Notes under the pieces: model-generated
Told to the model about the DNA's origin: nothing
The model's input: the letters and a program-made list of their open reading frames with translations, nothing else
Database searches by the model: none
Part shown: positions 8,091-22,580 of the stretch, piece after piece
Layout of the letters: each line of letters opens with the position of its first letter
Numbering within the stretch: position 1 is the first letter of the stretch
Position numbers and translations under genes: made by a program
From: Terrimicrobium sacchariphilum
Lineage (GTDB): Bacteria > Verrucomicrobiota > Verrucomicrobiia > Chthoniobacterales > Terrimicrobiaceae
NCBI RefSeq assembly: GCF_001613545.1
Contig: NZ_BDCO01000003.1
Span: 558,001 to 622,000 of the forward strand
Length of the DNA: 64,000 nucleotides
Reading direction: 5' to 3'

Positions 8091-8299
8091 GTGTTGTTTC
8101 CGCCTCAGCCCGTCTCATTCAATCCACAAAGGATCTCATGCTGGAGTGGGAACGCACGGCGGAGAGATGGCAGGATGCGAAGAGCCGGGAGTTTCATGAG
8201 GCATATCTGGAGGAGTTACCGCAGCACGTCATCCGGGCGACCGAGGCGATCGAGGAAATCCACACTTTGCTAAGAAAGGTGAAAGCCGATTGTGAATAG
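8087..8299 (+). CDS. Second WXG100-like small helical protein (W-Q-D variant)
   Basis: This 70-residue protein is a compact helix-turn-helix hairpin: helix 1 about residues 3-27, turn TAERWQDAK with Trp28, helix 2 about residues 31-68. Trp28-Gln29-Asp30, Phe36, Tyr40 and Leu41 fall at the same relative spacing as Trp43-Gln44-Asp45, Phe51, Phe55 and Leu56 in the 90-residue protein at 7282, so the two are probably a paralogous pair, as ESX substrates often are. It starts in an ATGA overlap with the preceding gene and overlaps the GTG start of the ATPase gene by 8 bp, implying translational coupling. There is no leader peptide. Too short to score well in family searches, which could explain its omission from automatic annotation. 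Confidence 0.7.
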   Translation: MSVVSASARLIQSTKDLMLEWERTAERWQDAKSREFHEAYLEELPQHVIRATEAIEEIHTLLRKVKADCE

Positions 8300-11200
8300 C
8301 TCAGCAGACCTCCGAGTGCAGCGCAGTCTGGCGCTGGTAAAATACCTGAAGGCGGTGACTGAGGAGTTCGCGCAAAAGGAAAGCGCGCTCTTGAGGGAAA
8401 TCAGCGCGCGGCGTGTGGCGGAGACACGAAAGTTCCGGGAGGAACAGGCCCGATTGGAAAACTGGCTGGCTGCCGAGACCGCTCTTGCGGATACGCGATT
8501 TCAGGAGCGAAAAGGGGAGGTCGAACATCGGGCAGCGCTGCGGGAGGCGCGGATTCGGAAGGCACATCGTACCGGTCTGGAGAATCTCCAGGAGCAGGCC
8601 AGACTGGCCAAGGAACGCTGGCTGGGAAACCTGCAGATGCGGCATTTCCGGGCTACAAGGACGTTGCCCCTCGATCTCAGGGCTGCGGACGAGGCGTATG
8701 CGGATTATTCTTCCAAGTTGGGCGGCTGGCAGGTGGCGGTGGCAGCGCTGGAACGAAAGGTGCGGGGAGCTTTTCGCGGCTATTGGACCTTTGGCAAACT
8801 GATAAAAACATCGTCCCCCGATCTGGCATCGGAGCCTCAGGACAGGTTCGTGCTCTTTGCGAAACTCCAGCAGGCTTATCGAGATGCCGAGGAGCGACTG
8901 GCGGAATTTCAAAAAATCGAGATTCCGAGGTATTTCAGTTTTTTACCTCCCCAACTCCTTATCCCATTGCTGGTGGCGATCCCGCTCGTTTCTTATTTCA
9001 TTGGTTCTCTGCCGCTTTTGACCATTGGCTCTGCGGCGGCCGATACTGTCTTGCTCGGGGCGATCTTCATTTTGCATCAAAAGGGACGGAGGCAGTCCCA
9101 GACGTCCGCCGAGGCGCTATCCGCAGCAGTGGCCCATGCGTGTGGGCTGGCTCGGCTTTGCCACGTTGTTGCCAACAGCCAGTACCAGGAAAAGCGTGAG
9201 AGACTCCAGCGTGAGTACGACCAGCTTTGCGCGGAGCTTGCGGAGAAGTGGGAGCAGGGCGATGCGATCGAAAGCCGGTTTGCCGTGGAGATTCGGGACA
9301 AGATCGAGGCGCAGGCTCCCCGGCTCTTGCTGCGGAATCAGGAATGGCGGACGGCTCGGCTGGAGCGAAACCAGGAGACCTATGAGGAGCGTCAGCGAGA
9401 AATCGCGGCCAGGGTCGAACCGTGGCGCGCTCAGACCTCCACAGCGTATGCTGCGGAAAGCTCGGCCTCGCAGGTCGAGGAGGAGGCGCGTTGGACAGAA
9501 CTGAAATTCGCATGGGAAGAGGCGATGAATCCACTGCTCGCCGATGTTGCCGCGATGCAGTCCACGGTGGCCGATACAGGCGCCCCCTGGGATGCCGATC
9601 TGGTGGAACACTGGACCCCGCCCGCCATCTTCAGCCCGGCCATTCAGCTGGGGGGATTGGTCGTGGATCTCGCCACGACGCCGCATCCGCGTGATTCCAG
9701 GCTCCGCATGCCGGAACCGGCGATACTCAACATCCCGCTCGCGCTATCGTTTCCCTCGCAGGGGTCATTGCTCTTTGAAACGTCCGAATCGGGCGCGGCG
9801 GAAGTGGCTGCAGTTTTCAATAACGCCATTTTACGCCTGCTCACCCACGCTCCTCCGGGAAAGCTGAATTTCACCATCCTGGATCCCGTCGGGCTGGGGC
9901 AGAATTTCGCCGGGCTCATGCACCTGACCGATTTTGAGGAGTCGCTCATCAACCGCCGCATCTGGACCCAGCGCGAGCAGATCGAGGAACGCCTCGCGGA
10001 GCTCAACGAGCATATTGAAAAGGTGATCCAGATGTATCTCCGCAACGAGTACGAGACGATCACCGAGTACAACGCCCAGGCGGGCAGCGTGGCGGAGAAA
10101 TATCACTTCCTCGTGGTGTCGGATTTCCCGGCGAACTTCAGCGAAACTGCCGCCAAGCGCCTCCAGAGCATCGTGACCTCCGGACCGCGCTGCGGCGTCT
10201 TCACCTTCCTCCACTGGGATCGCCGCCAGCCAGTGCCGGATGGGTTCGTGCCCGAGGAACTGCGCAAGAACGCCATCTGCCTCCGCCGGGATCATAACCG
10301 GTGGATTTTCCCGGCGGAGAAAACTCAGCCCGACGCCGTGGTCGCACTCGACCCGCCGCCGAGGAACGAACTGGCGGTGGATCTGGTGCACAAGATTGGC
10401 CAGAGCAGTATTGACTCCAATCGCGTCGAGGTGCCCTTTTCGCAGATCGCGCCGGGCGAGGCGGAACTCTGGACCGGCGATACCACGAGCGAGCTCAAGG
10501 TCGCCATCGGGCGCACGGGAGCCACGAAGCTCCAGTATCTCGCGATCGGCAAGGGGACACGCCAGCATGCGCTCTTTGCCGGAAAGACCGGATCGGGCAA
10601 ATCGACACTGTTTCACGTCATCATCACGAATCTCTCGCTCTGGTGCAGCCCGGAGCAGGTGGAGTTTTACCTGATCGACTTCAAGAAAGGCGTTGAGTTC
10701 AAGTGCTACGCCGAGCATCGCCTGCCGCATGCAAAGGTCGTCGCCATCGAGAGCGATCGAGAGTTTGGGCTGAGCGTTCTGCAGCGGGTCGATCTGGAGC
10801 TGAAGCGACGTGGCGACATGTTTCGCAAGCTCGGCGTGCAGGACATCGCGGGCTACAAGCGCGCAGGCGGCACGGAGCCGGTGCCGCGCACGCTGCTGAT
10901 CATCGATGAGTTTCAGGAGTTCTTCGTCGAGGACGACGAGATCGCGCAGACGGCCTCGCTTCTGTTCGACCGCATCGTCCGACAGGGACGCGCCTTCGGC
11001 ATTCATGTACTGCTCGGTTCGCAGACGCTGGGAGGAGCATATACGCTCGCCCGGGCGACCCTTGGGCAGATGGTGATTCGTGTAGCTCTGCAATGCAGTG
11101 AGGCCGATGCCTATCTCATCATGGACGATAACAATCCGGCGCCTCGTTTGCTCTCGCGGCCGGGTGAGGGCATCTACAACGACGCCGCCGGAGCGATTGA

Positions 11201-12185
11201 GGGAAACAGCCCCTTTCAGGTGGTATGGCTGTCCGACTCCGAGCGCGATACGCGGCTGGAGGAAATTCGCACCCTCGCCGAAGAGCGCAAGGAAGTCGCC
11301 GCACCGATTGTCTTTGAGGGAAATGCTCCCGCCGATCTGGAAGAAAATGTTCTGCTGAAGAATGTCATCGCGCACCCGCCGGTTTCCGCTTCGCCCATAG
11401 CGCGTGTTTGGCTGGGAGCGCCCAATTCCATCAAGGGACCGACCGAGGTCGGATTTCAGAACCAGAGCGGCAGCCATTTACTGATCGTGGGGCAGAATGA
11501 CGAGGCCATCTCAACGATGATGAGTGTTTCGCTCCTGGCGCTCGCTGCCCAGCACGCGGGATCAGAGGCCAGATACGTGTTTTTGACGCCGGACGGTCGC
11601 GGTTCGCTGCCGATCCTGGATTCGCTCGCTGCCGCACTCGGGAGCCGCCTGACCGTCGTGCAGAATGATGGCGTGAAAGACGCGATGCTGGCTTTGTCCG
11701 AGGAACTTGCCGCGCGGTCAGCGGGGGAGGGCGGAGCTCATGCTGAGCCGGTGTATGTCTTCATCCATCACCTTGAGCGTTTCAAGAAGCTCCGGAATGA
11801 AGACGACTTTAGCTTCTCCTCCAGCATGGATGCCACGCAGTCTCCGGCGGAGCAGCTTAAGGCTCTGCTTTCCGAGGGGAGCAGCGTCGGAATTCATGTG
11901 CTGGCCTCGATCGATACCTTCAATAATGTCGGGCGCTTCCTGAGCCGGAAGGCGCTGGGCGAATTTGAGATGCGCGTCGTCTTCCAGATGAGCGCGAATG
12001 ACTCGGCGAGCCTGATTGATTCGCCGCAGGCCAGCGCCCTCGGCTTGCATCGAGCCATTCTTTACAACGAGCACAACGGCTCGCTGGAAACGTTCCGACC
12101 CTATGCCGCGCCCGAGAATGACTGGGTGCGGGCGGCGGTGCAAAGCCTCACCGCAGCTTCGGCGGTAGGGACCCCGGCGCGATAA
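8292..12185 (+). CDS. FtsK/SpoIIIE-type (EssC/EccC-like) multi-domain ATPase
   Basis: This 1297-residue protein starts with GTG. Residues 1-210 are coiled coil; 216-260 hold two closely spaced membrane segments (PQLLIPLLVAIPLVSYFIG; TIGSAAADTVLLGAIFILH); another coiled coil follows to about 420. Three FtsK-like modules come next. Module 1 (about 440-650) has no intact P-loop. Module 2 (about 720-990) has Walker A GKTGSGKS at 764-771, Walker B LLIIDEF with Asp872-Glu873, and the FtsK stretch LLGSQTLGG. Module 3 (about 1050-1280) has a degenerate P-loop (VGQNDEAIST) and no acidic Walker B. One active and two degenerate modules in a membrane-anchored protein next to WXG-like genes point to a type VII-like export motor rather than a chromosome translocase; no gamma domain is evident. 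Unlike EssC it has no obvious FHA domains. Confidence 0.85.
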   Translation: MNSSADLRVQRSLALVKYLKAVTEEFAQKESALLREISARRVAETRKFREEQARLENWLAAETALADTRFQERKGEVEHRAALREARIRKAHRTGLENLQEQARLAKERWLGNLQMRHFRATRTLPLDLRAADEAYADYSSKLGGWQVAVAALERKVRGAFRGYWTFGKLIKTSSPDLASEPQDRFVLFAKLQQAYRDAEERLAEFQKIEIPRYFSFLPPQLLIPLLVAIPLVSYFIGSLPLLTIGSAAADTVLLGAIFILHQKGRRQSQTSAEALSAAVAHACGLARLCHVVANSQYQEKRERLQREYDQLCAELAEKWEQGDAIESRFAVEIRDKIEAQAPRLLLRNQEWRTARLERNQETYEERQREIAARVEPWRAQTSTAYAAESSASQVEEEARWTELKFAWEEAMNPLLADVAAMQSTVADTGAPWDADLVEHWTPPAIFSPAIQLGGLVVDLATTPHPRDSRLRMPEPAILNIPLALSFPSQGSLLFETSESGAAEVAAVFNNAILRLLTHAPPGKLNFTILDPVGLGQNFAGLMHLTDFEESLINRRIWTQREQIEERLAELNEHIEKVIQMYLRNEYETITEYNAQAGSVAEKYHFLVVSDFPANFSETAAKRLQSIVTSGPRCGVFTFLHWDRRQPVPDGFVPEELRKNAICLRRDHNRWIFPAEKTQPDAVVALDPPPRNELAVDLVHKIGQSSIDSNRVEVPFSQIAPGEAELWTGDTTSELKVAIGRTGATKLQYLAIGKGTRQHALFAGKTGSGKSTLFHVIITNLSLWCSPEQVEFYLIDFKKGVEFKCYAEHRLPHAKVVAIESDREFGLSVLQRVDLELKRRGDMFRKLGVQDIAGYKRAGGTEPVPRTLLIIDEFQEFFVEDDEIAQTASLLFDRIVRQGRAFGIHVLLGSQTLGGAYTLARATLGQMVIRVALQCSEADAYLIMDDNNPAPRLLSRPGEGIYNDAAGAIEGNSPFQVVWLSDSERDTRLEEIRTLAEERKEVAAPIVFEGNAPADLEENVLLKNVIAHPPVSASPIARVWLGAPNSIKGPTEVGFQNQSGSHLLIVGQNDEAISTMMSVSLLALAAQHAGSEARYVFLTPDGRGSLPILDSLAAALGSRLTVVQNDGVKDAMLALSEELAARSAGEGGAHAEPVYVFIHHLERFKKLRNEDDFSFSSSMDATQSPAEQLKALLSEGSSVGIHVLASIDTFNNVGRFLSRKALGEFEMRVVFQMSANDSASLIDSPQASALGLHRAILYNEHNGSLETFRPYAAPENDWVRAAVQSLTAASAVGTPAR

Positions 12186-12197
12186 GGCGCGGCGGTT

Positions 12198-12977
12198 TCA
12201 GGCGGGTGTTTCGCGCCACTCGCCGTTTTGGACATTGGCGGGGAGGGTGAGGTCATACTGCTCCCAGCCGGCAGCGATGCCGCCGTCGACCGGAAGGACT
12301 GCTCCGGTGATGTAGGAGGCCTCGTCGGAAGCGAGGAAATGAAACGCGGCGGCAACCTCTGCGGGTTCTCCGAGGCGGCCCAGCGGCGTGCGCTTTTCCA
12401 CGAAGGCGATCTCGGGATTGTCGGGAATCTCCGTTACTGCCGGGGTGCGGATGGTGCCGGGGCATACGCAATTCACGGTGATGCCCCGGGGGGCAAGCTC
12501 CACTGCGGCCAGCCGGGTGAGGTGAATGACGGTGGCCTTGGACGCGGCATAGGCCGTGCCGCAGGGAACTCCCAGCAGGCCGACGAAGGATCCGGTATTG
12601 ATGATGCGGCCTCCGGTGCTCATAAGGCGCGCGGCGTGCTTCGTTCCGAAAACCACGCCGTTCACATTCACGGCAAAGGTTCTTTGCAGGAGCTGCCCGG
12701 TGATTTCGGAAAAGGAAACGCCGAGTGGCTGGATACCTGCGTTGTTGACGACGATGTTGAGTCGACCATGGAGCGCGGCGATGCTCTCCATTGCGCTGGC
12801 GACCTCGTCTTCCCGCGAGACATCGACCGCCGCGCACGGGAAGGGCAGCTCTTCCCGAGGCGACAGGTCGAGTCCATGCACGATGGCTCCGGCTTCCTGG
12901 AACCGCTGGGCGATGGCGAGGCCGATGCCGGAGCTGGCTCCAGTGACCGCGGCGACTTTACCGGCGAGACTGAACAT
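12198..12977 (-). CDS. Short-chain dehydrogenase/reductase (classical SDR)
   Basis: This 259-residue protein has the classical SDR pattern: cofactor motif TGASSGIG (residues 12-19), NNAG at about 78-81, catalytic Ser130 and the YxxxK motif YAASK (Tyr143, Lys147). The Asp in HGLDLSP after the second strand suggests NAD(H) preference. It is the last gene of a minus-strand operon starting with an ABC permease at 19133 and containing two Rieske oxygenases, and begins 3 bp after the upstream Rieske gene ends. In such operons an SDR commonly oxidises the alcohol or cis-diol produced by the oxygenase, but the substrate is not evident. It ends 13 bp from the end of the convergent ATPase gene with no clear terminator between. 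Confidence 0.88.
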   Translation of the reverse strand: MFSLAGKVAAVTGASSGIGLAIAQRFQEAGAIVHGLDLSPREELPFPCAAVDVSREDEVASAMESIAALHGRLNIVVNNAGIQPLGVSFSEITGQLLQRTFAVNVNGVVFGTKHAARLMSTGGRIINTGSFVGLLGVPCGTAYAASKATVIHLTRLAAVELAPRGITVNCVCPGTIRTPAVTEIPDNPEIAFVEKRTPLGRLGEPAEVAAAFHFLASDEASYITGAVLPVDGGIAAGWEQYDLTLPANVQNGEWRETPA

Positions 12978-12980
12978 GCG

Positions 12981-14327
12981 TCACCTCTGGGCTGGAGCGG
13001 CTGGGCGATCTTGAGCGGGCCAGGAACCACGGCCTCGCGCGGCGAGGTAGCGCTGCATGAGCCACACCGACATTTCCAGGTGGCTGAGACGTCCCTGCTG
13101 CGCGCCAAGCGAACGCATGCCGCGCTGGATGGCGGTGCACATCTCCATATCCTCGAGGTGAAAGTCGATGAGCATCTTGGTCTCGCGGGTGAGCATCTCG
13201 GGAAACTCCGGATGCTCGGTGGTCGACTTCGGAACGAGCATCGTTGTGAGGAGCTTCATCCGGTGCGGCCCCATTGGCTGGACGCGATACCACACCACCC
13301 GGTCGGGCAGGACGAAGGTGAGGAAATTCGGGTAGATGAGAAAGAGTCCAGACTCCTTCTTTTTCCAGTCGGCGAGGGATTGGATGGTGGGGAAGCCGAA
13401 GGGATTGCCGCCCGCCTTTTCCATGGCCTCCCACTCGGCAACGAGGGCTTCCTTGAACGGAAGATGGCAGCGCACGTAGCTGTCGCGCTCCTGTTCATTC
13501 CACGTATCACGCGCGGGCATCATGGGCTGGAGGGTCTTGGCGTGCGCGCCGAGGTGGTGGTAGCTCTCCATGAAATTCTCGACTAGCACCTTCCAGTTGA
13601 ACGGGCAGTCCCATTCCCGCTCGATGATGACCTGCATGTCCTCGGAGTGCCAGTCGCCGAAATCGACGTTCATTTCTGAGAGGCGCTCGGCCAGAGGCGC
13701 GGCCTGCCCGTCGAAGTTCACGAAGATGAACCCGCGCCAGATCTCGGTGCGGAAGGGCATGAGGCCGTGGTCGTCGCGCTTGAACCCGCGCGCCTGCTGC
13801 ATCTCCGGGCAGGCTTTCAGCTTTCCGTCGAGTTCGAAGGTCCACGCGTGATAGGGACAGAGAAACAGGCGCGTGTGGCCGCAGTTGGGTTCGCTGCCGC
13901 GTGACTCGGCGACGCCATGGCCCTCGTGGCCGAATCCCGGCGGCATGATATCCATGCCCCGATGCGGACAGACACGCGAGAGCACGCGCACGGATTCGTC
14001 CTTGCCGCGCACGACGATGAGCGGCTCGCCCAGCAGGTCGAGATTCAGGAAGTCGCCCGGCTTGGGAATCTGCGAGACGTGGGCCACGCATTGCCACTCG
14101 CGGTGAAAGATATTGGTGACCTCCCACTGATAATATTCCTCGCTGGTGTAGGCCTCGGGAGGAGTCGTTACCGCGTCCTCCAGCGGGAGCGAGGCGCAGC
14201 TTTCGATGGCGGCCATCACCTCCGGCAGGGGGCGGATGGGGCGGCTTTGCTGCGAGGTCAGGGATTGGCCGACTGCATTTTCACAGGCGGATACTTTGGC
14301 TTCGGTGTCTTCGGCTAGAGCGATCAT
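12981..14327 (-). CDS. Rieske non-heme iron oxygenase, alpha subunit (paralogue 2)
   Basis: This 448-residue protein has a Rieske [2Fe-2S] domain with ligands Cys120-x-His122 and Cys157-x2-His160, and a C-terminal catalytic domain with the mononuclear iron motif ENFMESYHHLGAH (His257/258 and His262) and a later ED-containing helix (FHLEDMEMC). The gap between the two ligand pairs is 34 residues, much longer than the roughly 15-17 usual for ring-hydroxylating and choline-monooxygenase-type enzymes; the extra loop is rich in Gly and His and ends CGHTRLF. It belongs to the same operon as the paralogue at 15889-17226. No ferredoxin or reductase gene is nearby, so electrons must come from elsewhere. 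Substrate unknown: quaternary amines or plant phenolics are both possible. Confidence 0.88.
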   Translation of the reverse strand: MIALAEDTEAKVSACENAVGQSLTSQQSRPIRPLPEVMAAIESCASLPLEDAVTTPPEAYTSEEYYQWEVTNIFHREWQCVAHVSQIPKPGDFLNLDLLGEPLIVVRGKDESVRVLSRVCPHRGMDIMPPGFGHEGHGVAESRGSEPNCGHTRLFLCPYHAWTFELDGKLKACPEMQQARGFKRDDHGLMPFRTEIWRGFIFVNFDGQAAPLAERLSEMNVDFGDWHSEDMQVIIEREWDCPFNWKVLVENFMESYHHLGAHAKTLQPMMPARDTWNEQERDSYVRCHLPFKEALVAEWEAMEKAGGNPFGFPTIQSLADWKKKESGLFLIYPNFLTFVLPDRVVWYRVQPMGPHRMKLLTTMLVPKSTTEHPEFPEMLTRETKMLIDFHLEDMEMCTAIQRGMRSLGAQQGRLSHLEMSVWLMQRYLAARGRGSWPAQDRPAAPAQR

Positions 14328-14340
14328 GGCTGTTCAGGTG

Positions 14341-15195
14341 TCAGGCGGACGGCTGTTGCGCCCATTGTTGAAATTCCTTTTGCAGGAGGTGCCCGGTCCA
14401 GGAGTTCAGTTCCCAGAGGTTGGCGACGGGTTTTTGCGTATAGGGTTCGAGGTGGAGATAGCCGTCGGGACCGAATTCCGGCGTCATCGTGATGGTGTCA
14501 AAGCCACGGGCGCGCTGCCCTGCCCAGACGTGCTTCCACCAGCGCAGGTGCGCCTCCACGGCTTCGGAATACTCCGGCGCACGCGGATCGGGAACCTGCG
14601 GCCCCTGGTCGTAACCGATGCGGGGCTGGATGTGCAGGGCGCGCTCGGCGCAGAGGTCGAGCACATCGGGAAGCTGATCAAGCACGAGGCGCTCGGTGAC
14701 CACGCACCAATGGCTGAAATCCAGCGTCATTTCGATGGGTGGTGCTTCCTTGAGGAGTTCCCGCGTGATGACGGGATGAAACAGCGTGCGGCTGCGGTGG
14801 GTTTCAAAACCGAGGCGCACGCCGCGATCCTGGACGATCTCATAAGCCTCGGTGAGAAAGCGCACGCTGTCGCGGAAGACCCACAGATCGTTGCCCGCCA
14901 TGCTGCTAAAGAAGAGCGGCTCCGCCTCAAGGCTGGAATCAAGGATGCGCTTGAAGGCCTCCAGGTGATCGTCGACCGTGCTGCCGGGATCGGGCGTGGC
15001 GTAGCCGGTGGTAGAGATTTCCGCGATGTACCTGAGGTCATTATCCCGCAGGACGCTGATGAATTCTGCGCGCTCGGTCGGATCGGTGGGCAGCGGCCCC
15101 TCAATGCCGTGAAAGCCTGCATCGAGAACCTGTTTCGCCGCATCGGCGAACGTTCCCTCGTGTCCCCAGCGTTGTTTGAATAAGAGCAGTTTCAT
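14341..15195 (-). CDS. Sugar phosphate isomerase/epimerase-like TIM barrel (AP endonuclease 2 fold)
   Basis: This 284-residue protein is a xylose-isomerase-like barrel: an N-terminal MKLLLFKQRWGHEGTF strand and loop, AGFHGIEGPLP, RLGFETHRSR with a candidate metal-binding Glu, TLDFSHWCVV with candidate Asp and His ligands, and a C-terminal TMTPEFGPDGY strand with another Glu. Members include isomerases, epimerases, dehydratases and ring-opening or lyase enzymes acting on aromatic or sugar substrates, so a fold-level call is as far as the sequence goes. It lies between the two Rieske genes, overlapping the SUMF1-domain gene by 4 bp, so it probably acts on the same catabolic route. Confidence 0.82.
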   Translation of the reverse strand: MKLLLFKQRWGHEGTFADAAKQVLDAGFHGIEGPLPTDPTERAEFISVLRDNDLRYIAEISTTGYATPDPGSTVDDHLEAFKRILDSSLEAEPLFFSSMAGNDLWVFRDSVRFLTEAYEIVQDRGVRLGFETHRSRTLFHPVITRELLKEAPPIEMTLDFSHWCVVTERLVLDQLPDVLDLCAERALHIQPRIGYDQGPQVPDPRAPEYSEAVEAHLRWWKHVWAGQRARGFDTITMTPEFGPDGYLHLEPYTQKPVANLWELNSWTGHLLQKEFQQWAQQPSA

Positions 15196-15920
15196 AAATC
15201 ACAGGCGATGCGGAATCCCACATTGTCGCGCCGGATCGCCTCCGGCAGGGCGTCGCGCCAGGAGGTGCGGAGCAGGCGCGGCAGATAGTCCCAGGCCCCG
15301 CCGCGAATCACCCGCCACCCGCGCCGCCCCCCTTCGATCCAGGCCGAGCCGTCATTCGGTGCGCCGAGGTAGTCGGGGTGCCAGGTGTCCTGCGCCCATT
15401 CGCAGACGTTCCCGTGCATGTCAAAGAGGCCGAAGGCATTGGGCGGGAAACCTCCGCAGGGCGTGCGATGCCCGCGACCGACTTTCATGCCGTGCTCGGA
15501 GTAGAGGTAATTTGCCTGATCCGTATCGAGCGTGCTGCCGTGGGTGAAGATGTCGCGGCTTCCGGCCCGGCAGGCATACTCCCACTCCGCTTCCGTGGGC
15601 AGGCGAAAGGCGCGTCCGGTGTTTTCGCTGAGCCATTCGCAATATGCCGTGGCGTCGAGCCAGCTGATGCCCACGGCGGGCAGGCCGACGGATTCGCGGG
15701 GCGCGTGGCCAGGGCGGAAGGCGCGGAATTCCCCCACGGTGACAGGAAATACGCCCAGGCCGAAATCGCGTGGAATCGCGACCTCGTGGCGCGGGCGCTC
15801 CGTGTCGTTTGCAAACTTGTCCTCATCGTTCTCGCCCATCGCAAAGATCCCGGCGGGAACAATGGCGAGATCGGGAAGGATGGCCCGGTCAGCGCTGGGA
15901 AGGGGCGGCAGGACGGTCAT
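15192..15920 (-). CDS. SUMF1/FGE-fold protein lacking the FGE active-site cysteines
   Basis: This 242-residue protein is a complete formylglycine-generating-enzyme-type (C-type-lectin-like) domain: VPAGIFAMGEND near the start, RLPTEAEWEYACRAG in the middle, FGLFDMHGNVCEW, WRVIRGGAWDY and a terminal DNVGFRIACD. The two redox cysteines that precede the C-terminal NxGFR motif in true FGE are absent (the segment reads LLRTSWRDALPEAIRRDN), so it is unlikely to activate sulfatases. No leader peptide is seen. It overlaps the upstream Rieske gene by 32 bp and the downstream isomerase-like gene by 4 bp, so it is firmly embedded in the catabolic operon. It may be an accessory or maturation factor, a ligand-binding protein, or an iron enzyme of the EgtB-like branch; nothing decides this. 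Confidence 0.85.
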   Translation of the reverse strand: MTVLPPLPSADRAILPDLAIVPAGIFAMGENDEDKFANDTERPRHEVAIPRDFGLGVFPVTVGEFRAFRPGHAPRESVGLPAVGISWLDATAYCEWLSENTGRAFRLPTEAEWEYACRAGSRDIFTHGSTLDTDQANYLYSEHGMKVGRGHRTPCGGFPPNAFGLFDMHGNVCEWAQDTWHPDYLGAPNDGSAWIEGGRRGWRVIRGGAWDYLPRLLRTSWRDALPEAIRRDNVGFRIACDL

Positions 15921-17226
15921 AGGTCGGCCAGGTGTTGCGGGAACGCGCGGCGAGGTAGCGCTCGATCAGCCAGATGGGCATCTCAAGGTGGCTCAGACGA
16001 CCGCGACGGTATCCGGTGGAGTAAAAGCCCCGCTGCACGGCGGTACAGACCTCCATGTCCTCGAGGTGAAAATCGATCATCATTTTTTCCGCCGCCGCCT
16101 TTCGCTTTTCAAAGTCCGGCGCGGCGAGCGCTTCTTCGTTCACGAGCGTCGTGGTGATGAGCCTGCTGCGGTCCGTGGTGATCGGATCGAGTCGATACCA
16201 GATCATGCGATCGGGCCCGCCAAAGAGCAGAAAGGTGGGATAGGAAAGATACGCGCTCCATTGTACCTGATGCTCCGGCGGCAGGGTGGGGATGAGCGGA
16301 AAGCCTTCCGTCGTGCCGTCGGCGTATTGCTGCCGCATCTCGGACAGGGCGGCTTCCTTGAGCGGGGTATTGACCCGGATGGAATGCGCCCTCTCGCCCG
16401 AGGTCCATGTGTCCTTGGCCGGCATGAGCGGCTGGAGCGTGCGGCAGTGGGCGCCGAGGTGATGGTAGGGCTCCATGAAATTCTCGATGAGCACCTTCCA
16501 GTTGAACGGGCAATCCCACTCGCGCTCGATCACGACCTTCATTTTGCTCATGTCCCAACCCGCGAGATCGGAGGTGAGATCGGTCATGTTGGCCTCCAGC
16601 GATCCGGCTTTACCGTCGAGATTCACGAAGATGAAACCATTCCAAAGCTCGCTGCGGAAGGTGGTCAGCGCGTAGTCGTCGCGGCGGAAGCCCTCCGCAT
16701 TCTGCATTTCGGGGCAGGCCTTGAGCGAGCCATCGAGCTCGAAGCTCCAATGGTGATAAGGACAGAGAAACAGCCGCGTGTGGCCGCAGCCCGCGCCGCC
16801 CTCACGGGCATCGGCGGGGCCATGGCCGTCGTAGCCAAATCCCGGCGGCATGATATCCATCGCGCGGTGCGGGCAGACCCGGGAGAGCACCCGGATTTGC
16901 CCGTCCTTGCCGTGGACGACGATGAGCGGTTCGCCGAGGATGTCGATGTTGAGGAAATCGCCGGGGTTGGGAATCTGCGAACGGTGGGCGAGGCACAGCC
17001 ACTCCGCCCGCAGGACATTTTCCACCTCCCAGTTGTAGAAGGCCTCCGTGGTGTAAGCCTCCGCCGGCAGGGGGATGCCCTGCGCCAGCGGCAGGTCGGC
17101 GGCATGCTGGATATCGGCCAGGATGTCCTCCACGGTGCGGTCGGGCCGGGCTTTGCGGAAGATTGGGTACTCCGCAAAGCCACAGCCCGAGTTGCCAACA
17201 ACATTCGATTCGGCGACAGCGCTCAT
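15889..17226 (-). CDS. Rieske non-heme iron oxygenase, alpha subunit (paralogue 1)
   Basis: This 445-residue protein is a close paralogue of the product of 12981-14327 along its whole length, ending in nearly the same RYLAAR ... DRPAAP segment. Rieske ligands are Cys118-x-His120 and Cys155-x2-His158, again with an unusually long 34-residue spacer, and the catalytic-domain iron motif is ENFMEPYHHLGAH. It follows the substrate-binding protein gene by 14 bp and overlaps the SUMF1-domain gene by 32 bp. Two alpha subunits with no beta subunit in the window argue for homo-oligomers or a mixed complex of the two. Conserved DNA blocks between the genes (for example around 13938-13960 and 16840-16860) show a duplication. 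Confidence 0.88.
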   Translation of the reverse strand: MSAVAESNVVGNSGCGFAEYPIFRKARPDRTVEDILADIQHAADLPLAQGIPLPAEAYTTEAFYNWEVENVLRAEWLCLAHRSQIPNPGDFLNIDILGEPLIVVHGKDGQIRVLSRVCPHRAMDIMPPGFGYDGHGPADAREGGAGCGHTRLFLCPYHHWSFELDGSLKACPEMQNAEGFRRDDYALTTFRSELWNGFIFVNLDGKAGSLEANMTDLTSDLAGWDMSKMKVVIEREWDCPFNWKVLIENFMEPYHHLGAHCRTLQPLMPAKDTWTSGERAHSIRVNTPLKEAALSEMRQQYADGTTEGFPLIPTLPPEHQVQWSAYLSYPTFLLFGGPDRMIWYRLDPITTDRSRLITTTLVNEEALAAPDFEKRKAAAEKMMIDFHLEDMEVCTAVQRGFYSTGYRRGRLSHLEMPIWLIERYLAARSRNTWPTYDRPAAPSQR

Positions 17227-17240
17227 CGTGAGGTGTGCGA

Positions 17241-18287
17241 TTATTTCAGCTCGGCCGCGAGGGACTTGATCGGCTCAAAGCTCACGCCAGCGTCGATCGG
17301 GTGCTCCTTCTTGATCAGGCCAAACTTCAGCCACCAGGTCTCGGTGAGCTTCCAGTGGTCGTTGATCTCGCCGTTCTTCCAGCCGAGCGGCGGGTCTCCG
17401 GCCATCACGCCCATGAATTTCGCCGCCTCAGGCAGGTCGAAGACATAGATGCCGCCCTTGAGCCATTTGCCGTCCTTGCCGATGACGTTCTCGACATCTT
17501 TCACGTCAAATTTCAGGCCCTCGGCGATGATCTTGTTGCCTTCCTCGGGGTGAGCCTTCCACCAAGCCACGGCATCCCAGTAGGCCTTCATGGCTTTCTT
17601 GGCGGCTTCCGGCTTTTCCTTGAGAAAACTGTCGGACATGTACATGCCGTCTCCGAGCAGCGCGGTCTTCATGAAGTACGGCTCCAGCGAACTCGCCATG
17701 ACCTTGGACCCCTTCAGGCTCTCCAGCACCTGGCCGCCGAAGGGTTCCCAGAATTCGCCCGCCGCCACCTTGCCGCTGACCATGGCCGCCACGGCATCGT
17801 CCATCACGACGTTGACGTATTGTACCTCGTCAAACTTCACGCCGTTATTCTCCAGCCAGATGCCCATGAAGATCTGGGTGAGGCCGCCTTCCAGCACCGC
17901 GACAGACTTGCCCTTGAGCTCCTTCGGGTCGGCGATCTTCGGCGACATGATGATCTTGTCCGTGCCCGTCGATGGATTGGTGTAGGTGACGAATTTCACC
18001 GGCACGCCGCTGTCGGCCGCGATCGGGCCGTACTCGACCGTGCTGGAGGTGACGTCCAGCTTGCCCGCCGCCATCTGGCCAAAGCTCTCGTACGGGTCCT
18101 CGATGATCTGCACGTCGAGGTTGATGTCCGGTGCGAGGTTCTTCTCCTTGGCGATGAACCAGAATCCATATCCCGGCCACGAGAAGAGAGACACTTTTAC
18201 TGTCTCCTTGTCAGCCGCCACGCCTCCCTGTACCGCCATGCCCATGACGGCCAGGGCCGTCAGTATTGCCTTCCCCTTGGTTTTCAT
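17241..18287 (-). CDS. ABC transporter substrate-binding protein (SsuA/TauA/THI5-like)
   Basis: This 348-residue protein has a clear signal peptide (MKTKGKAILTALAVMGMAVQ, cleaved after VAA) and the bilobal fold of nitrate/sulfonate/taurine-type binding proteins: KVSLFSWPGYGFWFIAKEKN, ESFGQMAAGKLDVTSSTVEY, ADPKELKGKSVAVLEGG, and a C-terminal helical lobe with KAYWDAVAWWKAHPEEG. It lies 30 bp downstream of the ABC permease and directly upstream of the first Rieske gene, so it probably captures the compound the oxygenases attack. Binding proteins of this type serve sulfonates, nitrate, pyrimidine precursors and aromatic acids, so the ligand cannot be called. No lipobox is seen, consistent with a soluble periplasmic protein. 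Confidence 0.88.
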   Translation of the reverse strand: MKTKGKAILTALAVMGMAVQGGVAADKETVKVSLFSWPGYGFWFIAKEKNLAPDINLDVQIIEDPYESFGQMAAGKLDVTSSTVEYGPIAADSGVPVKFVTYTNPSTGTDKIIMSPKIADPKELKGKSVAVLEGGLTQIFMGIWLENNGVKFDEVQYVNVVMDDAVAAMVSGKVAAGEFWEPFGGQVLESLKGSKVMASSLEPYFMKTALLGDGMYMSDSFLKEKPEAAKKAMKAYWDAVAWWKAHPEEGNKIIAEGLKFDVKDVENVIGKDGKWLKGGIYVFDLPEAAKFMGVMAGDPPLGWKNGEINDHWKLTETWWLKFGLIKKEHPIDAGVSFEPIKSLAAELK

Positions 18288-18317
18288 AGTTTCGTGTTTT
18301 TTTGTTTAGTTGATTCG

Positions 18318-19133
18318 TTACTTGCGGCTACGCAGGTAGGGAAACGCCCACCAGCGCAGGCCGCGAATCGCCGCATCGGATAGGAATCCGAGCATGCCGA
18401 TCGTGAGGATGCCCGCCATGATGATGTCCATGCGCACGAGACGCCGCGCTCGCATCATCACCGCGCCGATGCCATCGGTGGCAGCGACGATTTCGGCGAT
18501 GACGAGGTACGTCCAACTCACCGCCAGCATTTGTCGCATTGTGTCGATGAAGAATGGCAGCGCGCAGGGCAGGATCACACGCAGGACGACCTGCCAGTGC
18601 TTCGCTCCCAACGTGCGCGAGGTGTCGATGAAATCAATCGGTACGCGCTTCGTGTCATCCATCAGGAGGCTGATGAGGAACCAGACGACGCCGATGAAAA
18701 GGAGGGCGATTTTTTGCTCATTCCCCGTGCCGAACCATGCAAGGAGCAGCGGAATGAAGGATGGCGCGGGCAGATAACGGAAAGGCGAGACGATGGGATT
18801 CAGAAAAGCCTCGACCGCCGGGAAGGAGCCCATGAGCACGCCGATGGGCATCGCCACGGCGATGGCCAGGGCAAAGCTGAGCATTGTGCGCTGGAGGCTC
18901 TGCCAGACATCGGTGGCGAAGCCCTTTTCGGCGAAAAGATTGTAGAGCGTCTCCAGGACGGTGACGGGAGTGGGCAGGAGCGCCTCGAGCTCCGGCGAGC
19001 GCGGAGCAAACTGCCAGACGCCAAGAAAGATCGCCCAGGCGGAGGCGGCGAGTGTCACCCTGGCCCAGCGCGGAAGGGTGGCTTGAAACTCAAACCAGCC
19101 GACGCGTTTGCTTGTTTGAGAGTTCGCAGCCAT
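18318..19133 (-). CDS. ABC transporter permease (SsuC/TauC-like)
   Basis: This 271-residue membrane protein has about six hydrophobic segments and the BPD_transp_1 signature region (LGAKHWQVVLRVILPCALPFF, the EAA loop contacting the ATPase). It resembles permeases of the sulfonate/nitrate/taurine class, matching the neighbouring binding protein. It is the first gene of the minus-strand operon 19133 to 12198. No ATP-binding subunit lies in the operon or elsewhere in the window, so the transporter must borrow an ATPase from another locus or the subunit gene was lost. The 245-bp divergent region to the MFS gene at 19379 should hold its promoter. Confidence 0.88.
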   Translation of the reverse strand: MAANSQTSKRVGWFEFQATLPRWARVTLAASAWAIFLGVWQFAPRSPELEALLPTPVTVLETLYNLFAEKGFATDVWQSLQRTMLSFALAIAVAMPIGVLMGSFPAVEAFLNPIVSPFRYLPAPSFIPLLLAWFGTGNEQKIALLFIGVVWFLISLLMDDTKRVPIDFIDTSRTLGAKHWQVVLRVILPCALPFFIDTMRQMLAVSWTYLVIAEIVAATDGIGAVMMRARRLVRMDIIMAGILTIGMLGFLSDAAIRGLRWWAFPYLRSRK

Positions 19134-19296
19134 TAGTTGCTCCGACAGCTGGCGGGTCGCGAACCGGCGCTTCCCTGGGTTTCTCTCGTCATCCCGTTTG
19201 TCTCCCTCCGAGAAATCATGTTCGCATGGTGCACCGGATGGCAGAATCCGGGAATAGCACTTTCTTCCTATACGGTCTTGGACTGGTTGACCGGGA

Positions 19297-19312
19297 ATTC
19301 TCCAGTGAGCCT
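19297..19312. promoter_or_regulatory. LacI-type operator, TTCTCC class
   Basis: ATTCTCCAGTGAGCCT matches the left half and centre of the family seen at 20802 and 29622, with a degenerate right half. It lies 67 bp upstream of the MFS start at 19379. A TTGACC hexamer about ten bases upstream could be a -35 element, which would place the operator in the promoter spacer. Confidence 0.5.
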
Positions 19313-19378
19313 GATCTTTCTCGGGGGTGGCCGAGCGGGGCGTGGTAGTGGTGGCAGCATGAGGTCCCTCTCCCCGCT

Positions 19379-20770
19379 ATGCATCCCGTAATCCCGTGCC
19401 GTTCGGAGACGTCACCCAGAACGAATCGCCCTCTCTGGAAAGCGGGGACGATCACTTATACCACTGGCGGGCTGGTGGCCCTGTTTGCCTGGCTGCTGCT
19501 CGGAGACTTCTCCTGGTCGATGCGCGACCGCTCCGTGGGACCCATGGCGATGTGGTATCTCAATCACCTGGGAGTGCCCAACCTCCTTTTCGGGCTGCTC
19601 ATCAGTTCCTTCCCAGCATTTATCGGACTCGTTCTCGGGCCCGTCATCAGTGTCAAATCTGACCGGCACCGTGGGCGATGGGGGCGCCGTATCCCGTTTC
19701 TACTCGTGACGACGCCCATGGCGGCGGCTGGCATGATCGGTATAGCCGTGACTCCCTTGCTCGCACGGTGGATGCACGGGCATTTCCCAGGGCAGAGTGA
19801 GATGGTCGTGTCTGTGGCATGCTTCGCGGTATTCTGGGCGACCTTCGAGATTGCAACTGTGGCGAGCTACTCGGTTTTCGGGGGACTCGTAAATGATGTG
19901 GTGCCGCAGCCCCTGCTTGGCAGGTTCTATGGACTCTTTCGTGCGGTCAGCCTGATCGACGGTGTGGTCTTCAATTACTGGATAATGGGCCACGTCCCCA
20001 ACCACTTCACTCTTATCCTGCTTTCTGTTGGAGTGTTTTACGGAGTTTCCTTCTTCTTGGTCTGCCTCCGTGTGCGAGAGGGCGAGTATCCTCCGCCCCC
20101 GTCGCCGGAACCCGGGCGGAGATGGCCCTCGGGGATGTGGTCGGAGGTCCGTACTTATTGCCGTGAGTGCTTTTCCAATCCCTATTATCTTGCAGTATTT
20201 CTCTTCCTGATGGGGGCGGGACAGGCGTTCATGCCGGTCAATACGTTTTCGATTCCTTACGCTAATAGTCTCGGCGTCAACATGGATAGTTACGGAAAGG
20301 CACTCGCGCTTACCTTTTTCATCTCGCTCTTGCTGGCCTATCCGCTCGGCTGGCTGGCGGACATCTTTCATCCGCTGCGGGTCGCTCTGGTATCACTGGC
20401 GGGGTATTTTATCGTAGCCATTTGCGGGGCGATCTTTGCGACGACTCCCCAGGCATTTCTGGTGGTCTTTGTCATGCATGGGGTACTCTCGGGGTCGTAC
20501 TTCACTTCGGCGGCCTCGCTGGGAGCTCGCCTGTTTCCCCGGGTGAAATTCGCACAGTTTGCCTCGGCTGCCCTCGCTGTGACCTCTCTCGCTACCATGA
20601 CGCTTACACCCCTCATGGGGGCGATCATCGACCAGACCGGAAACCTTTATCGTCTCACGTATGTGCTCGGCGCCTTCACGGCAGCCGTCGCTCTAGGGGT
20701 CGGCTGGTATGTGCATGCCCGCTTTGTGCAGTTGGGAGGTCCCAAGGCCTACGTGCCTCCGGAGTCTTGA
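19379..20770 (+). CDS. MFS sugar/uronide permease (GPH/SLC45-like), copy 1
   Basis: This 463-residue protein has about twelve hydrophobic segments and motifs of cation-coupled sugar permeases: VISVKSDRHRGRWGRRIPF in the loop after the third segment, LVNDVVPQPLLGRFYGLFR, and a C-terminal region with LGARLFPRVKFAQF. It is strikingly similar to the MFS protein at 49231-50607 over nearly the whole length. The genes around it encode an alginate-lyase-like enzyme, a PL8 lyase and uronate-dehydrogenase-like SDRs, so uptake of unsaturated uronides or short oligouronides is a reasonable inference. The TTCTCC-class operator 67 bp upstream suggests control by the LacI protein at 28569-29606. The start is the first ATG in a frame that opens shortly before it. 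Confidence 0.88.
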   Translation: MHPVIPCRSETSPRTNRPLWKAGTITYTTGGLVALFAWLLLGDFSWSMRDRSVGPMAMWYLNHLGVPNLLFGLLISSFPAFIGLVLGPVISVKSDRHRGRWGRRIPFLLVTTPMAAAGMIGIAVTPLLARWMHGHFPGQSEMVVSVACFAVFWATFEIATVASYSVFGGLVNDVVPQPLLGRFYGLFRAVSLIDGVVFNYWIMGHVPNHFTLILLSVGVFYGVSFFLVCLRVREGEYPPPPSPEPGRRWPSGMWSEVRTYCRECFSNPYYLAVFLFLMGAGQAFMPVNTFSIPYANSLGVNMDSYGKALALTFFISLLLAYPLGWLADIFHPLRVALVSLAGYFIVAICGAIFATTPQAFLVVFVMHGVLSGSYFTSAASLGARLFPRVKFAQFASAALAVTSLATMTLTPLMGAIIDQTGNLYRLTYVLGAFTAAVALGVGWYVHARFVQLGGPKAYVPPES

Positions 20771-20801
20771 GCGAATAGGAGGATCGTCCGGCTATGGGGG
20801 T

Positions 20802-20817
20802 ATTCTCCAATAAGAAT
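20802..20817. promoter_or_regulatory. LacI-type operator, TTCTCC class (near-perfect palindrome)
   Basis: ATTCT-CCAATA-AGAAT has perfect 5-bp arms. It lies 45 bp upstream of the GTG start of the alginate-lyase-like gene and 31 bp downstream of the MFS stop, so it probably gives the lyase gene its own regulated promoter. Confidence 0.6.
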
Positions 20818-20862
20818 TCCCCTCAGGTTGAGGCAAAAGACATGCGCTCATAGAGTGCGCAC

Positions 20863-22476
20863 GTGATTGCATTCCCTCCCTTTTCGCGCCCTATCGTTCG
20901 CTGGCTCGGAGGCCTCTTGATCGTGACGACCGGAACGTTTGGCGGCATCTGTCATGCGCAAGATATCCTGATGCGGACCGATTCCTTGGGCCAGGATCTC
21001 CAGCCCTATAGGGTGAAGGTCAATGGCAAGGAGCATAACTTTGCCGAACTGCTCAAGCTCAGGCCTGCTGACACGGACGGGGCACAGATCGAAACGGTGA
21101 AGCCGTTTCTCTTCAAGCATCCCGGCACGCTGAACGATCTGGATCAGTTGAATTTCATCAAACAGAAGATCGCCGAGGGCAGGGAACCCTGGGCGAGCGC
21201 CTTTGAGCGAATGAAGAAATCGCGTCATGGCAGGATCGACTATCTGGCAAAGATGAAGCAGCCACCGGAGATTATTTCGTCTGGATTCAGTGGATCCCAG
21301 GCTGTCGGCGCCTTTGAGGAGATGAATGACGCCACAGCGGCCTATGCCCAGGCTCTCCTGTGGTACTTCACGGGGGAAAGGAAATACGCAGAAAACGCGG
21401 CGGCCATTCTCGAGACCTATGCGAGGACAGTGAAGTCCCACGAAGGTGCAAACTGGTACCTGCTCGTTGCGTGGTCTGGATCGGTCTTTCCCGTCGCCGC
21501 GGATTTACTCAAGGCCACCGACCCCGAGTGGAAGAATGCGCCTGAGGTGCAGAAATGGTTCAACGATGTCTTTTTACCTGTACTCCACAACCGCGTCTCC
21601 CATGGCAATCGCGCCCTGGCCGTGATCAACGCGATGGCTGCGATAGGTGTCTTCAATGAAGACGTGGGGGCGTTTTATGAGGCGATGAACCACTGGTTGA
21701 GCTATGTGCCCGCTTATTTCTATCTCCAGTCAGACGGTCCCAAGCCGAGGATGCCTGACTACTGGCTGCCCGAGATCACGCCGAGTAACGCCTTTCTCAA
21801 TGCCCTCAACGCTCCTACCTTTCCGAAAGACTGGACGCCCTGGACTCAACTCGCCGAGGAGAACTGGAACATGGACAAGCGTCGGGGGAAATTTGGCGAT
21901 GACATCACCATCATGCGCAAGGCGGCGAAGGAAGAGCGCGATCCCGCGCCCGCGTGGCGTGGAGCGCCCGGCACCTACCTCGATGGCTATACAGCGGAAA
22001 CAGCCCGCGATCTGGCTCATGTCGATGTGTCCTTTGTTTCAGCGATGAACACCGCAGAGATCGCATGGCATCAGGGCATCGATCTTTATACCCCGGCGGC
22101 CAGGCGATTGACGACATTCATGGAAGCGCAGGCAAAGCTGCGGTTTGGTGAACCGCCTCCGGGTTCCGTGACAGAACCGCTCCTTGCTCTGGGAACGGGT
22201 CCGGGAGCTTATGAGATGGCCTACGATCGATTTCACAATGTCATGGGCATCGACCTGCCGCAGTCGTTGAAGTTTCTGGACGTCGTGATCCGACCGGCCA
22301 AGGGTTCGCGGGTATATCCGCTTGTCCGCGGCGAGGAGGGCCGTGATCCTCAGAATCCGCGGCTGTGGAAATTCCCGGAACCTTTCCCATCCCTGTTCGC
22401 TACCGTTATTAGCGAGGAGGATGGCTGGCTTAATAGCTGGCAGACCCTCACGCATCGCGATCTGCATGCAAAATGA
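20863..22476 (+). CDS. Secreted alginate-lyase-family protein (PL5-like alpha/alpha barrel)
   Basis: This 537-residue protein starts with GTG and has an N-terminal leader (RWLGGLLIVTTGTFGG ... CHAQ). The mature part matches the alginate_lyase domain (PF05426 type): a long helical toroid with DATAAYAQALLWYFTGERKYAENAAAI-type repeats, NWYLLVAWSGS, a SHGNRALAVINAMAAIGVF stretch with the conserved His-Gly-Asn-Arg, and a C-terminal segment with GTGPGAYEMAYDRFHN. This fold houses mannuronate lyases and related enzymes that beta-eliminate polyuronides or act on bacterial exopolysaccharides. It follows the MFS gene by 92 bp with its own putative operator. The exact substrate (alginate or another acidic glycan) is not determined. 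Confidence 0.83.
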   Translation: MIAFPPFSRPIVRWLGGLLIVTTGTFGGICHAQDILMRTDSLGQDLQPYRVKVNGKEHNFAELLKLRPADTDGAQIETVKPFLFKHPGTLNDLDQLNFIKQKIAEGREPWASAFERMKKSRHGRIDYLAKMKQPPEIISSGFSGSQAVGAFEEMNDATAAYAQALLWYFTGERKYAENAAAILETYARTVKSHEGANWYLLVAWSGSVFPVAADLLKATDPEWKNAPEVQKWFNDVFLPVLHNRVSHGNRALAVINAMAAIGVFNEDVGAFYEAMNHWLSYVPAYFYLQSDGPKPRMPDYWLPEITPSNAFLNALNAPTFPKDWTPWTQLAEENWNMDKRRGKFGDDITIMRKAAKEERDPAPAWRGAPGTYLDGYTAETARDLAHVDVSFVSAMNTAEIAWHQGIDLYTPAARRLTTFMEAQAKLRFGEPPPGSVTEPLLALGTGPGAYEMAYDRFHNVMGIDLPQSLKFLDVVIRPAKGSRVYPLVRGEEGRDPQNPRLWKFPEPFPSLFATVISEEDGWLNSWQTLTHRDLHAK

Positions 22477-22493
22477 GGCCGCGATTCAGTTTA

Positions 22494-22509
22494 GTTCTCC
22501 AATGAGGAT
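22494..22509. promoter_or_regulatory. LacI-type operator, TTCTCC class
   Basis: GTTCTCCAATGAGGAT matches the family consensus, with the right half one base off. It lies 17 bp after the lyase stop and 71 bp upstream of the PEP-CTERM gene at 22581. Confidence 0.5.
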
Positions 22510-22580
22510 TTTCGCTGCCTTGTCCGCCACCTCCTTCCTGACAACGATCTGATCCAAGATTTACCCCCTAGTAATCATCC

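What the first reader, a model, noticed from the sequence alone, without database searches (positions are those of the whole stretch)
12198..19133. Catabolic operon with two Rieske oxygenases but no reductase and no ABC ATPase
Permease, binding protein, two alpha subunits, SUMF1-domain protein, isomerase-like protein and SDR overlap or abut in one direction. Known Rieske systems need a reductase (often a ferredoxin too) and ABC importers need an ATPase; both are missing from the window. The gene set does not match a pathway I recognise.
Basis: partly seen in the sequence, partly recalled or inferred. Interest (0 to 1): 0.6.

Follow-up and report, generated by a model that had tools for sequence, protein, structure and literature searches.

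The report
Rieske operon feeding guanidine breakdown
These soil and water bacteria carry an operon of two iron enzymes and an uptake system that most likely breaks guanidine off a larger molecule for use as nitrogen, a job not described before for this type of enzyme, and the usual electron-supplying partner is missing from the whole genome.

Summary
The seven-gene operon is real: permease, NMT1-type binding protein, Rieske oxygenase RO1, SUMF1/PvdO-like protein, xylose-isomerase-like TIM barrel, RO2 and SDR, at 12198-19133 (-). Two congeners keep it, under purifying selection. The 'missing' ATPase is not missing: a NitT/TauT-type ATPase lies in a second island of the same genome (C2:2365534-2366394), beside a type III glutamine synthetase, an amidotransferase, a creatininase-family gene and a second binding protein/permease. 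A third island encodes the guanidine-carboxylase route. In a same-family genome these genes lie on one contig. Across relatives, RO clusters sit beside one of two unrelated guanidine-degrading routes: carboxylase/UAAP1-2/allophanate hydrolase, or GdmH-type guanidine hydrolase. Best reading: the oxygenases hydroxylate a carbon next to a guanidino nitrogen, as the related CntA does next to trimethylammonium; guanidine is released and assimilated. The substrate is unknown; nothing here is biochemical. The missing reductase is genuine: Fer2, NAD-binding, Reductase_C and Rieske models found only NuoG, SdhB, two CysJ-like flavoproteins and a bc-type Rieske protein in the 96%-complete genome. A distant Paraburkholderia relative has a reductase directly behind its oxygenase. 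No held paper found describes a Rieske route to guanidine.

The parts
18318..19133 (-). NitT/TauT-type ABC permease (BPD_transp_1), first gene of the operon
   Evidence: 97% identical in G001 and G002
17241..18287 (-). NMT1/SsuA-like periplasmic binding protein (type A)
   Evidence: 66-74% identical copies in relatives' oxygenase clusters
15889..17226 (-). Rieske oxygenase alpha subunit RO1
   Evidence: member of a supported 9-row subclade
15192..15920 (-). SUMF1-fold protein, closest to PvdO, without a cysteine pair in the FGE catalytic stretch
14341..15195 (-). Xylose-isomerase-like TIM barrel (IolE/epimerase fold), candidate lyase or isomerase
12981..14327 (-). Rieske oxygenase alpha subunit RO2, closest fold CntA carnitine monooxygenase
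12198..12977 (-). Classical short-chain dehydrogenase/reductase, last gene of the operon
   Evidence: 55-72% identical SDR beside RO2-like oxygenases in relatives

Best explanation
The operon is the front end of a guanidine-yielding nitrogen-scavenging pathway. The binding protein and permease import one or more guanidino compounds, using the NMT1-family ATPase encoded in the second island. RO1 and RO2 are two different CntA-like Rieske monooxygenases that hydroxylate the carbon next to a guanidino nitrogen. The resulting hemiaminal breaks into guanidine and an aldehyde or ketone, perhaps helped by the SUMF1-like or TIM-barrel protein acting like MgdL. The SDR and downstream enzymes process the carbonyl product. 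Guanidine goes to guanidine carboxylase, UAAP1/UAAP2 (carboxyguanidine deiminase) and allophanate hydrolase in the third island, and the ammonia is taken up by the type III glutamine synthetase. Shown: gene content, conservation, split and contiguous arrangements, enzyme families, diagnostic residues. Inferred: substrate class, hydroxylation site, lyase role, ATPase sharing. Unknown: exact substrate(s) and electron donor.
For: (1) G010 (same family) carries UAAP1-UAAP2-carboxylase-allophanate hydrolase-SBP2-PERM2-ATPase-creatininase-GS3-GS3-LuxR-PERM-SBP-RO1-SUMF1-TIM-GFA on one contig; the window's genome has most of these ingredients in three islands. (2) By my count over, of 27 verrucomicrobial carrier genomes 13 have carboxylase-route genes in the fetched stretch, 3 (L065-L067) have a GdmH-type gene instead, 3 (G000, G001, G002) have a full-length carboxylase elsewhere, and 8 show none in the stretch held. 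(3) The L065 ureohydrolase matches GdmH 7esr/7oi1 at E 1.9e-156, next non-GdmH family 1.5e-44; L067 adds a Ni-transporter-like gene and urease genes. (4) The window genome's carboxylase has Asp where K. lactis urea carboxylase has Asn, the residue called diagnostic in PMC12186494 (passage); 7 of 8 readable carboxylases have Asp. (5) RO2's model matches CntA best (Z 38.5, 2.2 A, 347 residues), then other quaternary-amine oxygenases at Z about 36, aromatic ones at about 33 or less. (6) In Acetobacteraceae L078 the RO abuts a 3-guanidinopropionase-like enzyme (3nip, E 3.4e-138) and a second ureohydrolase. (7) Precedent: guanidine-carboxylase operon with a 2-OG oxygenase and a hemiaminal lyase for methylguanidine (PMC12508155 passages).
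Against: No guanidine riboswitch reached the gathering score in 22 loci, or E 1 in window 10000-24000, although many known guanidine operons have one. 8 of 27 carriers show no guanidine gene in the stretch held; four of those stretches are under 9 kb, but L064 is 21 kb and G051 19.6 kb. L075's carboxylase has Cys at the diagnostic position. The window genome's guanidine genes are not next to the operon. Co-location could mark a general nitrogen-scavenging island. Creatininase-family, PuuE-like deacetylase, SUMF1-like and amidotransferase genes have no assigned step. No biochemical data.
Confidence: 0.55

Rival explanations
1. The oxygenases degrade a quaternary amine or betaine (carnitine, glycine betaine or stachydrine type), as their nearest characterised relatives do, and the guanidine genes are near only because all serve nitrogen scavenging.
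For: Best NCBIfam match GbcA; best PDB matches CntA and stachydrine demethylase; bridging Glu and an aromatic residue two before it are kept.
Against: Two unrelated guanidine-degrading routes alternate beside the same RO cluster, and ureohydrolases also sit near two of three proteobacterial relatives. The CntA cysteine pair is absent. NCBIfam scores (125-132 bits) are far below the GbcA cut-off of 670.
Confidence: 0.2
2. Ring-opening pathway: the substrate is a cyclic guanidine (creatinine or iminohydantoin type), oxidised by the Rieske enzymes and opened by the creatininase-family and PuuE-like hydrolases; guanidine or methylguanidine is only an end product.
For: Creatininase-family and PuuE-like genes recur in the clusters. 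A GFA-family gene, a hint of formaldehyde from N-demethylation, occurs in several loci.
Against: The creatininase-family proteins score 84 and 124 bits against a 235-bit creatininase cut-off and higher on MftE. RO1-type clusters L033, L034 and L035 show no PuuE-like gene in the stretch held.
Confidence: 0.15
3. Guanidino groups are split off hydrolytically or by other enzymes, and the Rieske enzymes act on the carbon skeleton at a site away from the guanidine.
For: SDR, TIM barrel, SUMF1-like and PuuE-like proteins suggest a larger, perhaps sugar-like skeleton.
Against: The nearest solved relative CntA oxidises carnitine to trimethylamine, a break next to a cationic nitrogen (PMC7948474, abstract and passages). 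GdmH and guanidine carboxylase act on free guanidine, so something must release it.
Confidence: 0.1

Closest known systems
[quoted passage not shown]
   Same: An oxygenase plus ABC importer plus guanidine carboxylase, CgdAB and allophanate hydrolase; the oxygenase hydroxylates a carbon on a guanidino nitrogen; a helper lyase splits a stable hemiaminal.
   Different: MgdH is a 2-oxoglutarate dioxygenase; here the oxygenases are Rieske enzymes. Riboswitch control there, none detected here. Extra SDR, TIM-barrel, SUMF1-like, GS and creatininase-family genes here.
Carnitine monooxygenase CntA/CntB (PMC7948474, PMC10952381, passages read)
   Same: Closest solved fold and sequence; Rieske motif, 2-His-1-carboxylate site and bridging glutamate; expected cleavage of a carbon-nitrogen bond next to a cationic nitrogen.
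   Different: Cysteine pair not kept; 34-residue spacing in the Rieske loop; no CntB-like reductase in the window's genome.
GdmH nickel guanidine hydrolase operon of Synechocystis (PMC12186494, passages read)
   Same: GdmH-type gene and a Ni-transporter-like gene occur in three relatives' clusters.
   Different: Not seen in the window; no Rieske oxygenase is mentioned for it in the passages read; relatives' GdmH has a His-rich N-terminal extension.
Homoarginine-6-hydroxylase and ethylene-forming enzyme (PMC11018352, passages read)
   Same: Iron oxygenases whose hydroxylated product releases guanidine.
   Different: 2-oxoglutarate-dependent, unrelated fold (recalled).

Membership tests
Rieske non-heme iron oxygenase alpha subunit | Rieske [2Fe-2S] ligands C-x-H ... 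C-x2-H and mononuclear iron H, H, D | tested here: met
   C120, H122, C157, H160, H257, H262 and D393 invariant in 15 of 15 aligned proteins and in 10 of 10 of A2; Pfam Rieske and Ring_hydroxyl_A over cut-off
CntA-like (Group V) quaternary-amine Rieske monooxygenase | Bridging glutamate equivalent to CntA E205 | tested here: met
   E254 invariant in 15 of 15; register to E205 inferred from the end points and an assumed 20-residue tag
CntA-like (Group V) quaternary-amine Rieske monooxygenase | Cysteine pair C206/C209 beside the bridging Glu (only some members, PMC10952381) | tested here: not met
   RO2 has Ser255/His258, RO1 Pro/His at these columns
CntA-like (Group V) quaternary-amine Rieske monooxygenase | Cognate FMN/[2Fe-2S] reductase (CntB/GbcB type) | tested here: not met
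   None in the operon. Own genome Fer2 hits are NuoG and SdhB, NAD_binding_1 hits two CysJ-like proteins, no Reductase_C. Distant relative L077 has one
NitT/TauT-type ABC importer | Binding protein, permease and ATPase | tested here: met
   SBP and permease in the window; ATPase 74% identical to G010's in a second island. That this ATPase serves this permease is inferred
Formylglycine-generating enzyme | Catalytic cysteine pair near the C terminus (recalled) | tested here: not met
   The invariant stretch RGGAWDYLPRLLR..WRD holds no invariant Cys in 8 of 8; best PDB match PvdO
Guanidine carboxylase (versus urea carboxylase), third island | Asp instead of Asn in the carboxyltransferase site | tested here: met
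   Asp aligned with Asn of K. lactis urea amidolyase; position 1330 recalled, the Asp/Asn rule from PMC12186494 passages
MgdH/MgdL methylguanidine demethylase | 2-oxoglutarate/Fe(II) dioxygenase in the guanidine operon | tested here: not met
   The oxygenases are Rieske enzymes
Guanidine-releasing oxygenase | Guanidine formed from a guanidino substrate | not testable with these tools
   Needs an enzyme assay

The most novel reading that the evidence does not exclude
A family of Rieske oxygenases, largely of Verrucomicrobiota, is a new biological source of free guanidine. It works with a previously unrecognised lyase (SUMF1-like or TIM barrel), and in the window's genome and most relatives it is reduced by an electron donor that is none of the known Rieske-oxygenase reductases.
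Probability: 0.3. Interest if true: 0.8.

Novelty: new variant of a known kind. Interest (0 to 1): 0.6.

Why it matters
Guanidine-sensing and guanidine-degrading systems are widespread, yet the natural sources of guanidine remain an open question in the 2025 review read here (PMC12186494, passages). A Rieske route would add a new enzyme class to the few guanidine producers known. The clusters name a short list of genes for direct assay. The genome-wide lack of a conventional reductase makes the electron donor of a Rieske oxygenase a testable unknown.

Tried and rejected
Permease pair at C2:1783821-1786345 as the ATPase partner: it looks like a polyamine-type locus (two permeases and a spermidine/putrescine-like binding protein; judged by eye), rejected. 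Local reductase: no plant-type 2Fe-2S motif in the seven stretches mapped. Rieske ferredoxin as donor: the third Rieske hit lies beside cytochrome b, so bc-type. Guanidine riboswitch: none. Tandem duplication of RO1/RO2: rejected, they fall in different supported subclades. Plasmid relatives: none above 31% identity for the L077 oxygenase (14 records); SUMF1-like matches 42% or less in the 10 of 56 records listed. SxtT as nearest kin: weak by sequence (E 8.5e-4), Z 21 by fold. TIM-barrel function by fold: many tied isomerases, epimerases and dehydratases (Z 18-20), no single function. Promoter/terminator scan of 12000-19500: nothing usable. Literature joint searches found no Rieske-guanidine pathway; two papers hold both words 'Rieske' and 'guanidine carboxylase' (a Nitrospirales comparison and a contaminant review), seen only in the listing.
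Full report
What is there. The seven ORFs stand at the stated coordinates on the minus strand and abut or overlap. In order they are: permease 19133-18318, NMT1-type binding protein 18287-17241, Rieske alpha RO1 17226-15889, SUMF1-fold protein 15920-15192, xylose-isomerase-like TIM barrel 15195-14341, Rieske alpha RO2 14327-12981, SDR 12977-12198. The window is G000:C3:558001-622000 of a 4.75-Mb genome in 3 contigs, 96% complete. RO1 and RO2 (56% identical) are the only two matches in it with RO1 as query.

Conservation. Both other genomes of the genus that were searched (G001, G002) keep all seven genes in order at 91-99% protein identity. dN/dS is 0.018-0.10 in 14 of 14 comparisons, lowest for RO2. 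The family is rare: in 387 genomes of the phylum 9 matched RO2 at E 1e-40, 7 of them (own included) at 50% identity or more and 2 at 30-31%. In genome contigs the best 80 loci split into 19 at 43-98% identity (L061-L079, 16 of Verrucomicrobiota and 3 of Proteobacteria) and 61 at 35% or less. A tree of 44 oxygenases puts 34 in one clade (100/99); RO1 and RO2 lie in different supported subclades, so they are not a recent tandem duplicate.

The ATPase. The closest relative of G010's cluster ATPase in the window's genome is 74% identical, at C2:2365534-2366394; the next is 48%. It sits in an island with a LuxR regulator, type III glutamine synthetase (over the NCBIfam cut-off), class-I amidotransferase, creatininase-family protein, a second NMT1 binding protein (best NCBIfam match the 'putative urea ABC transporter' family TIGR03427, below its cut-off) and a second permease. 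In relatives the window-type permease/binding-protein pair has no ATPase directly beside it in the mapped stretches, while in L034, L069 and L073 one ATPase stands with the second pair in the same locus. One shared ATPase is therefore the simplest reading; it is inferred.

The guanidine connection. A third island, C2:1466000-1485000 (L149), encodes UAAP1, UAAP2, a 1195-aa urea/guanidine carboxylase and allophanate hydrolase; the UAAPs and the hydrolase exceed their NCBIfam cut-offs. In G010 these genes and the second transporter precede the ATPase, creatininase-family gene, two GS genes, LuxR, permease, binding protein, RO1, SUMF1-like, TIM and GFA genes on one contig. I counted 27 verrucomicrobial carrier genomes, taking G387=L062/L052, G002=L061, G033=L035/L054 and L070/L079 as one each. 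13 have carboxylase-route genes in the fetched stretch: G010, G027, G033, G043, G267, G376, L062, L068, L069, L072, L073, L075 and L079. 3 have a GdmH-type gene: L065, L066 and L067. 3 have a full-length carboxylase elsewhere: G000, G001 and G002. 8 show none in the stretch held: G021, G051, G184, G292, L063, L064, L071 and L074. The L065 ureohydrolase matches Synechocystis GdmH structures at E 1.9e-156 against 1.5e-44 for the next family; that 7oi1/7esr are GdmH is recalled. L065-L067 carry a Ni-transporter-like gene (named by eye), and L067 continues into urease genes. Two unrelated routes for the same small molecule beside one oxygenase cluster is the main argument that guanidine is its product. 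In Acetobacteraceae L078 the oxygenase is followed by a 3-guanidinopropionase-like enzyme and a second ureohydrolase, and Paraburkholderia L077 has a ureohydrolase some 8 kb on; Haliea L076 shows none in 21 kb.

Guanidine or urea. A review states that Asp marks guanidine carboxylases and Asn urea carboxylases (PMC12186494, passages). In the window genome's enzyme Asp aligns with Asn of K. lactis urea amidolyase (that this is residue 1330 is recalled, and fits the printed numbering). Of 8 readable carboxylases in carriers 7 have Asp and L075 has Cys; L035, L062 and L079 are cut off before the site.

The oxygenases. The metal ligands and a bridging Glu are invariant in 15 of 15 aligned proteins. 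The RO2 model (pLDDT 84.7) matches CntA best (Z 38.5, 2.2 A, 347 residues), then other quaternary-amine oxygenases (Z about 36), then aromatic ones (Z about 33 or less). CntA uses a bridging Glu205, a Tyr203 that contacts the cationic nitrogen, and a cysteine pair shared by some relatives (PMC7948474, PMC10952381, passages). Here the Glu is kept, the Tyr position is Phe or Trp, and the cysteine pair is absent from RO1 and RO2. Guanidine-releasing hydroxylation at a carbon on a guanidino nitrogen is known for 2-oxoglutarate enzymes (PMC11018352 and PMC12508155, passages). The MgdH product is a long-lived hemiaminal split by the lyase MgdL, so the SUMF1-like or TIM-barrel protein, each found in most clusters, is a candidate for such a helper. 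The TIM-barrel model (pLDDT 86.5) resembles sugar epimerases, IolE and dehydratases about equally.

The reductase. In the window's genome Fer2 hits are NuoG and SdhB, NAD_binding_1 hits are two CysJ-like flavoproteins (identified by eye from the sequences), Reductase_C has none, and the third Rieske protein is bc-type. Over 29 carrier genomes, of which 26 are verrucomicrobial and 25 distinct (G387=G435), I found Fer2 and NAD_binding_1 side by side, as in a CntB-type reductase, in G043, G051, G184, G437 and G446, thus 5 of 25, and in 3 of 3 proteobacterial carriers (read by eye); several of the 25 are incomplete MAGs. In Paraburkholderia L077 such a reductase directly follows the oxygenase. The electron donor in the window's organism is unknown; glutathione-reductase-like or thioredoxin-reductase-like proteins and [4Fe-4S] ferredoxins were not searched for.

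Weak points. No guanidine riboswitch was found. The substrate is unknown; the creatininase-family, PuuE-like, amidotransferase and SUMF1-like genes have no assigned step. Whether a PuuE-like gene exists elsewhere in the window's genome was not searched. Co-location is not proof of a shared pathway. No assay exists. Literature was limited to the held open library.

Noticed in passing
L075:10831-14448 (+): Carboxylase of the guanidine cluster has Cys instead of Asp or Asn at the position said to separate guanidine from urea carboxylases.
   Followed up: partly
L065:1787-3244, L066:2242-3702, L067:2463-3926: GdmH-like proteins with a His-rich N-terminal extension of about 110 residues, beside a Ni-transporter-like gene.
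   Followed up: partly
window 12981-17226 and relatives: Verrucomicrobial oxygenases mostly have an enlarged Rieske loop: 34 residues between H122 and C157 in RO2, against 22 in the relatives L076 and L077.
   Followed up: no
L071:6383-6682: A short RO2-like remnant next to an intact RO1 cluster, suggesting loss of one oxygenase.
   Followed up: no
window 8292-12185 (+): 1297-aa FtsK/SpoIIIE-domain protein convergent with the operon; a homologue lies at the same place in G002.
   Followed up: no
window 19379-22476 (+): Divergent MFS sugar-type transporter and alginate-lyase-like protein upstream of the operon.
   Followed up: no
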